DNA from: an uncultured Synergistales bacterium
Lineage (GTDB): Bacteria; Synergistota; Synergistia; Synergistales; Aminobacteriaceae
Assembly: GCA_905233725.1 (NCBI GenBank)
Contig: CAJOEM010000027.1
Coordinates: forward strand, 1-33,064
Reading direction: 5' to 3'
Length of the DNA: 33,064 nt
Shown: positions 8,312 through 31,089 of the stretch, in pieces
Position numbering within the stretch: the stretch's first letter is position 1
Layout: each line of letters opens with the position of its first letter
Translations under genes and position numbers: made by a program
Notes under the pieces: model-generated
The model's database searches: none
Seen by the model: only the letters and a program-made list of their open reading frames with translations
What the model was told of the DNA's origin: nothing

Positions 8312-10041
8312 ATGAGAAAATTATGCGTAGTTTTTTTAGCGGCTGCGTTGGTCGTGTGCGCTGTATCGGCGGCGTTGGCGACTGATTACGGCTATGCTTT
8401 GGTTGCGGTCGGTGAGGGAAATTATATCGAAGAACCTGAACTTCACGAAAATTATGATGATGCTGTTGCGGGATACGCTGGTCATAATTATTTCGCGAAG
8501 TATCGAGTTCCTGATGTTGGACTTTATATTTACGACGTATCCAAAGTAGAAGACGCGTTGGGGGGGGTATAGACCTAGACACTCTTGTTGATGCCGGCGC
8601 AAGGCAGATAGATTCTGGTTCTTACTCTGTTTCATGGGATCTCGTATCCGATAGAACTTCTCTACGTATCACAGAAATTACTTCTGACGCATCAAACGAT
8701 ATTCTTGTTGTTTCAGGCGTACTTCCTGAGTCAGAATCCGAATACGAGTATGATTTGTATTTCGTAGCTAAGGCTATTAATATCACGGATTCTACGTTTA
8801 ATCAAATTTTCAGCAGTGTGACTGAAGTTTCGACGGATTTTGGAGTTGAAGCGAACGCTTTGGCGATACAAGTTGAAGTAGACGAGCATGATAAATCTAC
8901 AGAAGCAGATCTACAGAAATATATAGATTCGTACAACGCAGCTACAATCGGGAAAGTCGCGAAAGATTACTCGGTGTTAGTGACGGTCAGTGCTGATTAC
9001 GATTCTATATTAGGTGGCTATGGCGTATATATCGAATCCGATGACGATTACATGATAAGCGTTCCTGAATGGCTCACGTATCAGGTAAATTCAGTTTATG
9101 ACGGCGTAACTGAAGATTTCGAGGGCACAGCTATAACTTCCGTGACTATCAAATTCAACGATAGCTACAACGGCACGCTCAATGATGGCGAAAAAGCTGT
9201 CGTCTGCATTCCGTTCATCAAGGACGACGAGAACAATACTCTCGGGATCAATCTTAAATGGGAAGTCGAATACTCATCAACAAAAGCTGAACCGTTCAAA
9301 CTCGCTGAGCATTCGAAAACTTTCGCGGTCAAAGCCGGTGGTGACAATTCGCTGCAATCTGTGAATTACACCGGAGCAGATCCCGTGGGCTCGGCAAAGT
9401 TCAATCCGGACATTTCCGCCAACGTCAAGATCGAGTACACGCACGCCAACGGAAAACTGAATTTTACAGTTAGTGCACCGTCAACAACTCAAGCCGGTCA
9501 ATACAAAACTACCGCAACATTTACGGACGCAGCTGGGAATTCTGACGCAATCGAAATAACTGTGAACGTCAGCGTTGACAATGGACAGCAGCCAAACACT
9601 CCGCCAACTAGCCAGGATTTGACAATAGCTGGAAATTTTGCAGTCTCAGTTGATGTAGGTTCAAATGCCAGCACAACTCTAACTGTCAACGGGAATTTCA
9701 CTGGCGCATTAACTTGGACAGTCGGAGAAATTTCTGTCGAAGGTCTGAGCGCAACTGCAACGGCTTCGGGAAATAATTCGGCAAAAATCACTATCAATGT
9801 TGCTGATAATGTCGCTTCCGGAACTTACGATGTGCCAATCACTGTAACTGACGGGGCGAATAAATCCGCAAAAGTCACGCTGAGAGTAACTGTCATTCAG
9901 AAAACTACACCGACTCCGACACCAACGAATCCGAACGGAGTTTATCGTAGCAGCGGTGGTGGTGGAAGCTGTAACACAGGATTATTCGGACTTGCATTCG
10001 TGTTAGTGCCGTTAATCCTCGTGAAAAAAATTCGCAACTAA
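8312..10041 (+). CDS. Synerg-CTERM surface protein, frame broken at a G8 tract
   Basis: This is an exported protein of unknown function. The ATG at 8312 has AAGGAG 11 bases upstream and opens a signal peptide (MRKLCVVFLAAALVVCAVSA). The frame stops at 8572, just after eight Gs at 8560-8567. With nine Gs it would continue without a stop to 10041 as a 576-residue protein, through the later frame that is open from at least 8755. The middle is acidic and matches no family I know. Residues from about 330 on look like two beta-rich Ig-type repeats (ATFTDAAGNSDAIEITVNVS and VTDGANKSAKVTLRVTV). A Pro/Thr linker leads to the tail GGGGSCNTGLFGLAF, a hydrophobic helix and KKIRN: the Synerg-CTERM signal. 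It is first of three such genes. Either the sequence has lost a G, or the gene is switched off by slippage. Confidence 0.75.
8560..8567 (+). repeat. Poly-G tract (8 G), frame-breaking
   Basis: Eight consecutive Gs lie at codon 81 or so of the first Synerg-CTERM gene. Eight gives LGGV then stop; seven gives a stop a few codons later; nine opens the full frame. Confidence 0.9.
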
Positions 10042-29252: not shown

Positions 29253-30170
29253 ATGTCAGTGCCTAAATATAACGAATTTTTCCCGGTTTTCATGGAATTT
29301 CTCTCGGACGGAAACGAACACACGTTACAGGAAGTTCGCGATTATTGTGCGAGCAAGTTCGATTTATCCGAGGAAGACAAGAGAGCAACTTTTCCCACTG
29401 GGAGAAATATACTTATTAATCGCCTTGGCTGGGCACAAACGTATCTGAAGCAAGCTGGTTTAATTACGAATCCTAAACGTGCTGTAGTAGCTATTAGTAC
29501 GTTTGGAAAAGAAATTATGAGCAATGGGGGGGGGATTTTTACGCTAAAATATGTCCGTGAGCTACAACAACAGAAGTCCGATACATATACTAACTCTATA
29601 TCTACTATAGAGAATTCTGCAATACCTGAACCTGAAGAACAGACTCCTCAGGAAATGATTGATGTCTCAATGGCACAGTTGAACGCGGAACTTGCAGACA
29701 AACTTCTCGATGAATTAACACGAATGGACGAGTATGATTTTGAATACGTAATTGTAGATTTGCTTTTGAAGATGGGTTACGGGAAACCTGAAGAAAACCA
29801 GGATGCTGTCACGCGAAAATCCGGGGACGGCGGAATTGACGGAATAGTTCGGGCGGATAGATTCGGCTTTGACGCTATATATACTCAGGCGAAACGCTGG
29901 AAGGAAGATTCTCACGTGCAAAGACCAGACATTCAGAAATTTCTCGGAGCAATGGTCAGTCTCGGAGCTACGAAAGGATTATTCATAACTACAGGACAAT
30001 TTTCGAAGGGAGCGTTGGATTTTGCGGCACAGAATCACAATCACAAAATCGTTCTCGTTGACGGCAAGAAGCTTGCTGAACTAATGATTGAGTACGGTCT
30101 TGGCGTAACGACTGTGAAAACGTACGAGATCAAGCGCGTTGACTCGGATTATTTCAGCGCGGACAGTTGA
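29253..30170 (+). CDS. mrr: Mrr-type restriction endonuclease with an in-frame G9 linker
   Basis: This 305-residue protein is predicted to cut DNA, as Mrr enzymes do, often modified DNA. Residues 1 to about 90 form the winged-helix Mrr N-terminal domain (VPKYNEFFPVFMEFLSDG to LGWAQTYLKQAGLI). A linker of about 65 residues begins at NGGG, encoded by nine Gs. The catalytic domain (about 158-290) is intact: GDGGIDG (191-197, Asp196), then TQAKRW with Gln212 and Lys214, the usual Mrr D-x(n)-QxK site, preceded by Glu164. AGGAG lies 11 bases before the ATG. No methyltransferase is nearby, which suits a modification-dependent enzyme. Loss or gain of one G would truncate it to 97 or 102 residues, leaving only the DNA-binding domain. 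Two shorter paralogues follow. Confidence 0.88.
   Translation: MSVPKYNEFFPVFMEFLSDGNEHTLQEVRDYCASKFDLSEEDKRATFPTGRNILINRLGWAQTYLKQAGLITNPKRAVVAISTFGKEIMSNGGGIFTLKYVRELQQQKSDTYTNSISTIENSAIPEPEEQTPQEMIDVSMAQLNAELADKLLDELTRMDEYDFEYVIVDLLLKMGYGKPEENQDAVTRKSGDGGIDGIVRADRFGFDAIYTQAKRWKEDSHVQRPDIQKFLGAMVSLGATKGLFITTGQFSKGALDFAAQNHNHKIVLVDGKKLAELMIEYGLGVTTVKTYEIKRVDSDYFSADS
29526..29534 (+). repeat. Poly-G tract (9 G) in the Mrr linker
   Basis: Nine Gs encode Gly-Gly-Gly of NGGGIF at residues 92-94, at the junction of the DNA-binding domain and linker. The two paralogues have DDKTEF at this place and no G run. Confidence 0.9.
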
Positions 30171-30260: not shown

Positions 30261-30647
30261 ATGTCAGTGCCTAAATTTAATGAGTTTTTTCAGGATTTTA
30301 TGGAATTTCTCTCAGATGAACAAGAACATGTAGTGCAGGAAGTTCGTGATTATCTTGCGGGTATTTTCAACTTATCCGATGAGGACATGAGAGCTACGAC
30401 CCCGAGTGGAGGAAATTTATTTTTCAACCGAGTATCATGGACGCAAACGTATCTCAAAAAAGCTGGCTTAATCGCGAATCCTGAACATGCAGTGGTCGTG
30501 ATTACCCCGTTGGGAAAGAAAATTCTGGACGACAAGACTGAATTCACGCTTGATTTTGTTAAGGATCTCATGATAAAAAACGGCGAATATCCTACTGAAC
30601 CTGCAACGAGATTCTCACATGTAAGACGCACGAAAACACGAACGTAG
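30261..30647 (+). CDS. Orphan Mrr N-terminal-domain protein, copy 2
   Basis: This 128-residue protein aligns with residues 1 to about 105 of the complete Mrr protein upstream (SVPKFNEFFQDFMEFLSD; WTQTYLKKAGLIANPEHAVV) and then ends in a short basic tail (RFSHVRRTKTRT). The nuclease domain is absent and no remnant lies before copy 3. The ATG at 30261 matches the starts of copies 1 and 3 and has AGGAG 11 bases upstream; the in-frame ATG at 30237 precedes that ribosome site and is rejected. It has its own promoter. It probably binds DNA without cutting. It could regulate or compete with copy 1, or simply be a decayed duplicate; the clean frame argues for some selection. Confidence 0.75.
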   Translation: MSVPKFNEFFQDFMEFLSDEQEHVVQEVRDYLAGIFNLSDEDMRATTPSGGNLFFNRVSWTQTYLKKAGLIANPEHAVVVITPLGKKILDDKTEFTLDFVKDLMIKNGEYPTEPATRFSHVRRTKTRT

Positions 30648-30679
30648 ATTTTCAAAATATTACGTTTTGAAATTTCGTG

Positions 30680-30708
30680 TTGCAATTTCGTGATGAAACC
30701 ATTAGAAT
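30680..30708 (+). promoter_or_regulatory. Promoter of Mrr copy 3
   Basis: TTGCAA, 17 bases and TAGAAT, again 39 bases before the start codon. The spacer begins TTTCGTGAT, like TTTCGCGAT in copy 2. Confidence 0.65.
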
Positions 30709-30747
30709 CGCGAATTATTGATATAGTACAAGGAGTGGATTTTTGAA

Positions 30748-31089
30748 ATGTCGGTGCCTAAATACTATGAGTTTTTCCCGGACTTTATGGAATTTCTCTC
30801 AGATGGAAAAGAACATGCGATGCAGGAAGTTCGTGATTATCTTGCGGGGATGTTCAACTTGTCCGATGAGGATATGAGCTTTACCACACAGAATGGCGGA
30901 AGTTTGTTTTTCAATCGTGTTGACTGGGCGAAACTGTATCTCAAGAAGGCCGGCTTAATAGCGAATCCTGAACTCGCTGTAGTCGTGATTACTCCGTTTG
31001 GTAAGAAAGTTTTGGACGACAAGACTGAATTCACGCTTGATTTTGTTAAAGATCTCATGATAAAAAACGGCGAATATCCTACAAACTAG
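30748..31089 (+). CDS. Orphan Mrr N-terminal-domain protein, copy 3
   Basis: This 113-residue protein is the Mrr winged-helix domain alone (SVPKYYEFFPDFMEFLSDG; VDWAKLYLKKAGLIANPELA). Its last 25 or so residues (DDKTEFTLDFVKDL, then KNGEYPTN) are almost the same as in copy 2, so copies 2 and 3 share a more recent ancestor, or have been homogenised, after losing the nuclease part. The stop comes 13 residues earlier than in copy 2. Ribosome site AGGAG lies 12 bases before the ATG and a separate promoter is present. Function is unknown; DNA binding is inferred from the domain. Confidence 0.75.
   Translation: MSVPKYYEFFPDFMEFLSDGKEHAMQEVRDYLAGMFNLSDEDMSFTTQNGGSLFFNRVDWAKLYLKKAGLIANPELAVVVITPFGKKVLDDKTEFTLDFVKDLMIKNGEYPTN

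What the first reader, a model, noticed from the sequence alone, without database searches (positions are those of the whole stretch)
29526..29534. G9 tract in the linker of the Mrr nuclease as an on/off switch
Nine Gs are in frame at the exact junction of DNA-binding domain and linker. Eight Gs give a stop after 97 residues, ten after 102. Either way the product is a DNA-binding domain alone, the same architecture as copies 2 and 3. The paralogues lack the G run, so it arose, or was kept, only where a nuclease follows. Phase-variable restriction systems are well known, but in type I and III systems; a slippage switch between nuclease and nuclease-free forms in Mrr would be unusual.
Basis: partly seen in the sequence, partly recalled or inferred. 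Interest (0 to 1): 0.75.

Follow-up and report, generated by a model that had tools for sequence, protein, structure and literature searches.

The report
Slippery G9 tract in Mrr nuclease
A run of nine Gs inside a gene for a DNA-cutting defence enzyme is very probably a replication-slippage on/off switch, because this bacterium and its relatives carry many such G-runs in switchable surface genes; other classes of restriction enzyme are known to be switched this way, but no case in this class was found described.

Summary
G9 lies at 29526-29534, in frame, in a 305-aa Mrr_N + Mrr_cat gene. G8 ends it after 97 aa, G10 after 102. Chance or protein composition do not explain the run: GGG is 7.5% of glycine codons, and about 0.3-0.4 runs of G>=9 are expected genome-wide against 6 found.

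The best evidence is the company it keeps. This genome has 12 runs of G>=8, most in classic contingency genes (glycosyltransferases, FkbM methyltransferase, surface proteins), several out of frame. One of them, G8 at 8560-8567 in this window, splits a surface-protein gene. All 43 genomes of the genus carry G>=9 runs. In relatives, coding runs are in frame 16:26 (about 1/3), against 251:45 for G4-5 runs: free slippage.

The Mrr G9 is most likely an ON-state phase-variable locus. Orthologues in 14 other species and about 80 wider homologues lack the run, so it is young. Strain or read data, which would decide, were unavailable.

A role for the truncated form is unsupported.

The parts
29253..30170 (+). 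mrr gene: Mrr_N winged-helix domain (aa 6-89) + linker + Mrr_cat PD-(D/E)XK nuclease (aa 156-278); ON at G9
   Evidence: Pfam PF14338 1.1e-23 and PF04471 2.5e-34; PADLOC mREase_IV 6.2e-67, end to end; catalytic-type residues E164, D196, Q212, K214 invariant in 24 sequences
29526..29534 (+). G9 tract, proposed slippage switch; codes Gly92-94 in the loop after the winged helix
   Evidence: genome-wide and genus-wide excess of G tracts
29524..29526 (+). ATG overlapping the first G of the tract, out of frame; at G10 it would open a 215-aa nuclease-domain frame (use speculative)
   Evidence: G10 frame
30261..30647 (+). paralogue 2: Mrr_N only, no G run, no nuclease domain
   Evidence: PF14338 5.1e-25; 63% aa identity to copy 1, dN 0.22 / dS 1.27
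30748..31089 (+). paralogue 3: Mrr_N only, no G run, no nuclease domain
   Evidence: PF14338 3.3e-23; 80% aa identity to paralogue 2, dN 0.10 / dS 0.64
8560..8567 (+). second G tract in the window (G8), splitting a surface-protein gene (8312-10041) into two frames: same kind of switch, OFF state
   Evidence: Big_13 Ig-like domain downstream

Best explanation
The G9 is a poly-G contingency (phase-variation) tract in a solitary Mrr-type, modification-dependent (type IV) restriction gene. Slipped-strand mispairing at replication would change G9 to G8 or G10. G9 (or another length divisible by three) gives the full winged-helix + nuclease enzyme (ON); other lengths stop after about 100 codons and leave at most a winged-helix fragment without nuclease (OFF). 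The population would then hold cells with and without restriction of modified incoming DNA, a bet-hedge against phage and against self-damage when a new methyltransferase is gained. Shown: tract, frames, domains, non-chance G run, and a genus-wide set of frame-switching G tracts in contingency-type genes. Inferred: that this tract slips, that the full protein restricts DNA, and that OFF is a simple loss of function.
For: Run far above chance and not forced by protein or codon use. 12 runs of G>=8 in the genome, most in FkbM, GT2, GT92, lipoprotein and surface-protein genes with mixed ON/OFF frames. All 43 genus members have G>=9 runs; 132 of 151 sampled genomes of the order do. Coding tracts of relatives in frame 16:26 against 251:45 for G4-5 runs, Fisher 4.9e-10, not different from 1/3. 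Length 8-10 Gs is enough elsewhere: Cj0031c G9, wcbK G8/9/10 across strains, pglX G8 to G7. Slip products lose the whole nuclease.
Against: No length variant of this tract was seen. Orthologues in 14 other species and about 80 wider homologues have no G>=7 in the gene, so there is no sign of long-term maintenance. MutS1 is present, which may keep slippage moderate. G9 is at the short end of the tracts seen in relatives (up to G19). It is the only restriction gene among the 66 tract-gene segments scanned, so there is no recurrence.
Confidence: 0.72

Rival explanations
1. Incidental G run: a recent slippage expansion in a poorly constrained surface loop of a genome prone to long G runs, with no selected switching. 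It may mutate at times, but OFF alleles carry no benefit and are lost.
For: The site varies in length and sequence among homologues. No orthologue keeps the tract. Some long G runs in this genome are intergenic.
Against: Length 9 is where slippage becomes frequent in comparable systems, and such runs are otherwise rare in this genome outside contingency-type genes.
Confidence: 0.2
2. Switch between two working forms: the short winged-helix product of G8/G10 is itself active (for example a repressor or a competitor for binding sites), like the Mrr_N-only paralogues 2 and 3.
For: Paralogues 2 and 3 are Mrr_N-only proteins kept under purifying selection, and the truncation keeps the complete winged helix.
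Against: The truncated form lacks the FTLxxVxxL helix that paralogues 2 and 3 keep and ends in a different tail for G8 and G10. With two dedicated paralogues already present a third source is redundant.
Confidence: 0.05
3. The tract acts at the level of transcription or translation slippage, so that a fixed G9 gene yields a mixture of full-length and truncated protein without any DNA change.
For: Long homopolymers can cause slippage of polymerase or ribosome (general knowledge); an ATG overlaps the tract and would open the nuclease frame at G10.
Against: The out-of-frame states of the sibling tracts in this genome and in relatives show change in the DNA itself.
Confidence: 0.05
4. Assembly or sequencing error: the true run has another length.
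For: Draft genome of 57 contigs; homopolymers are error-prone, and one G8 run lies at a contig end.
Against: G9 keeps a 305-codon frame open with homology on both sides; long G runs recur in all genus members.
Confidence: 0.03

Closest known systems
[quoted passage not shown]
   Same: Nine Gs inside the reading frame of a restriction gene; insertion or deletion splits it into two frames; homologues lack the tract; many other poly-G tracts in the genome, mostly in surface-glycan genes.
   Different: Cj0031c is a fused methyltransferase-nuclease, so switching alters the methylome; Mrr has no methyltransferase. Variation is demonstrated for Cj0031c and not here.
pglX of the phage growth limitation system, Streptomyces coelicolor (PMC4365076)
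   Same: A G tract in a phage-defence gene, G8 to G7 switching resistance off.
   Different: PglX is a methyltransferase in a multi-gene system; here a single nuclease gene.
wcbK G8/G9/G10 of C. jejuni (PMC4658567)
   Same: Same lengths and same ON/OFF logic (G9 intact; G8 and G10 broken).
   Different: A capsule gene; variation seen across strains.
EcoKMrr and Mrr-related type IV enzymes (PMC3874153)
   Same: Mrr_N DNA-binding domain + Mrr_cat nuclease.
   Different: No phase variation is mentioned for them in that review.

Membership tests
Mrr-type (type IV) restriction endonuclease | Mrr_N domain followed by Mrr_cat domain | tested here: met
Mrr-type (type IV) restriction endonuclease | (D/E)..(D/E/Q)xK nuclease residues | tested here: met
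   E164, D196, Q212, K214 invariant in 24 sequences; the nuclease domain matches MspJI/AspBHI folds, with a moderate model
Mrr-type (type IV) restriction endonuclease | No partner methyltransferase | tested here: inconclusive
   No DNA methyltransferase gene in the window next to it; neighbours differ between species; the rest of the genome was not scanned
Mrr-type (type IV) restriction endonuclease | Cleaves modified DNA | not testable with these tools
   needs an assay
Poly-G phase-variable (contingency) gene | Homopolymer of about 8 or more in the reading frame, above chance | tested here: met
Poly-G phase-variable (contingency) gene | One-base change abolishes the full product | tested here: met
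Poly-G phase-variable (contingency) gene | Organism uses such tracts in other genes, with mixed frame states | tested here: met
Poly-G phase-variable (contingency) gene | Reversible length variation at this tract within the species | not testable with these tools
   one genome per species; no reads
Poly-G phase-variable (contingency) gene | Tract conserved in orthologues (supporting, not defining) | tested here: not met
   no G>=7 in orthologues; also absent in homologues of Cj0031c

The most novel reading that the evidence does not exclude
A phase-variable type IV restriction enzyme working together with constitutive Mrr_N-only paralogues: slippage sets the ratio of nuclease-bearing to nuclease-free Mrr subunits and so tunes attack on modified DNA against tolerance of self-modification.
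Probability: 0.1. Interest if true: 0.7.

Novelty: new variant of a known kind. Interest (0 to 1): 0.5.

Why it matters
If confirmed, phase variation would extend to a restriction enzyme without a methyltransferase. Switching would then change DNA uptake and self-damage but not the methylome, which separates the defence role from the 'phasevarion' role that usually confounds such systems. It also points to a bacterial order that appears to run an extensive poly-G contingency system and whose tracts could be counted directly in existing metagenome reads.

Tried and rejected
A viral-contig scan for the exact site found nothing, as did a plasmid search with the locus. Measuring tract length across orthologues failed because none has the tract. 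Recurrent phase-variable restriction genes in relatives: none among 66 tract-gene segments. Loss of mismatch repair as the reason for the many tracts: not supported for this genome, MutS1 is present. A composition effect: rejected by run-length decay and glycine codon use. Copies 2 and 3 as decaying pseudogenes: not supported, dN/dS about 0.16-0.20. Literature searches for phase-variable Mrr or other type IV enzymes gave no case, within an open-licence library only.

Full report
Observation. The run of nine Gs is at 29526-29534 as stated, in frame in an ORF of 305 codons at 29253-30170. Recounting with other lengths gives 304, 305 and 306 residues for G6, G9 and G12, and 101, 97, 102 and 98 residues for G7, G8, G10 and G11. 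The protein has Mrr_N at 6-89 and Mrr_cat at 156-278 and matches PADLOC's type IV mREase model end to end. The residues expected of the (D/E)..QxK nuclease (E164, D196, Q212, K214) are invariant in a 24-sequence alignment. A fold model (pLDDT 78.5, pTM 0.49) places Gly92-94 in the loop after the last winged-helix helix (83-90) and before a helix at 98-114; the low-confidence linker is 112-129. By sequence and fold the best PDB matches are the Mrr_cat enzymes MspJI and AspBHI, at modest scores.

More than chance? In 84 kb of this genome, runs of G or C number 803, 128, 10, 3 and 0 for lengths 3 to 7, and then 12 at lengths 8-10; that sample was chosen to hold the long runs, but its short runs were not selected. 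Decay of the short runs predicts 1.7-2.2 runs of G>=8 and 0.25-0.35 of G>=9 in the whole genome; a first-order model scaled up gives about 0.42 for G>=9. Observed are 12 and 6. GGG is 7.5% of glycine codons in the window, so three in a row, given three glycines, has a probability near 4e-4; the other glycine triplets use GGC and GGT. Runs of A>=8 are commoner (107 in the genome), so the excess claim rests on the expectation for G, not on a comparison with A.

Context, the decisive part. The other long G runs of the same genome lie mostly in genes of the kinds used for contingency variation. The surface-protein gene at 8312-10041 in this very window is split at a G8 (8560-8567). An FkbM-family methyltransferase, a GT92-like glycosyltransferase and a lipoprotein gene are out of frame; a GT2 glycosyltransferase and another large surface protein are in frame; an amino-acid permease has a run near its end; the rest are intergenic or read as C on the sense strand. 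All 43 genomes of the genus have G>=9 runs, some of them dozens, and 132 of 151 sampled genomes of the order have at least one. Tracts of relatives reach G19. With duplicates removed, coding tracts of relatives are in frame in 16 cases and out of frame in 26, against 251 and 45 for G4-5 runs in the same loci (Fisher 4.9e-10); the proportion does not differ from one third. That is what freely slipping tracts give. Their genes include glycosyltransferases, capsule synthesis, acetyltransferases, FkbM and surface proteins. Frame states were read from open-frame lengths alone, so single assignments may be wrong; the contrast with short runs is the robust part.

Orthologues. Fourteen other species of the order have an Mrr match at E<=1e-40; a further same-genus copy (L016, E 1.5e-36) lacks part of the nuclease domain. 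None has G>=7 in the gene, and neither do 80 homologues from other groups. The best full-length orthologue is 65% identical with synonymous sites saturated, so this says the tract is young, not that it is stable. The same was reported for Cj0031c, whose homologues lack its G9.

Tandem copies. Copies 2 and 3 match copy 1 in the Mrr_N domain (63% and 59% identity) and each other (80%), share its upstream region, and show dN/dS of 0.17-0.20 against copy 1 and 0.16 against each other. They look like kept proteins, not debris. They continue through the FTLxxVxxL segment that follows the tract in copy 1, whereas the G8 and G10 products end before it. The OFF product is thus a bare winged helix, shorter than the paralogues. 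No orthologue locus examined has extra Mrr_N copies beside it.

Mechanism. The most likely account is replication slippage between G9 (ON) and G8/G10 (OFF) in a modification-dependent nuclease that has no methyltransferase next to it. The benefit would be a mixed population: some cells cut modified phage DNA, others escape the self-damage that Mrr causes when foreign methyltransferases arrive (E. coli Mrr, PMC3874153). This benefit is inference. MutS1 is present, so rates may be moderate. At G10 an ATG overlapping the tract would open a 215-aa nuclease-domain frame; its use is speculative.

Against the known. Poly-G phase variation of restriction or defence genes is known for types I, III and IIG and for pglX. 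No phase-variable Mrr or other type IV enzyme was found in the papers searched. This case works like Cj0031c but belongs to another enzyme class. I call it a new variant of a known kind, unproven until length variants are seen.

Noticed in passing
window 8312-10041, tract 8560-8567: A G8 run splits a secreted surface-protein gene with Ig-like domains into two frames (OFF state); with one more G the frame is open for 576 aa. Likely a second phase-variable locus in the same window.
   Followed up: partly
window 30261-31089: Two tandem Mrr_N-only genes with a duplicated upstream region, dN/dS about 0.16-0.20, not seen beside orthologues in related species. Function unknown; possible competitors or partners of Mrr.
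   Followed up: partly
whole genus and order: Poly-G tracts of 9 or more are widespread (all 43 genus genomes; 132 of 151 sampled in the order), while single genera in the order have none. No description of this as a contingency system was found in the papers searched.
   Followed up: partly
L040:3085-3093 (+), G000:C32:35684-35692: An intergenic G9 lies between a TTGACA and a TATAGT (spacer 22), followed by a gene start; it could vary promoter spacing as poly-G tracts do in some Neisseria promoters. The long spacer makes this uncertain.
   Followed up: no
L042:2262-2269 (-), G000:C34: A C8 on the sense strand near the end of a 242-aa membrane-protein frame; the reading seems to go on in another frame, so this may be another switched envelope gene.
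   Followed up: no
L035, L039, L042, L044 and window 8560: All these G8 runs are followed by TA(C/T)AG (GGGGGGGGTAYAG), though the genes are unrelated; L039 and L044 are copies of one sequence. Unexplained; it might be chance or a shared origin.
   Followed up: no
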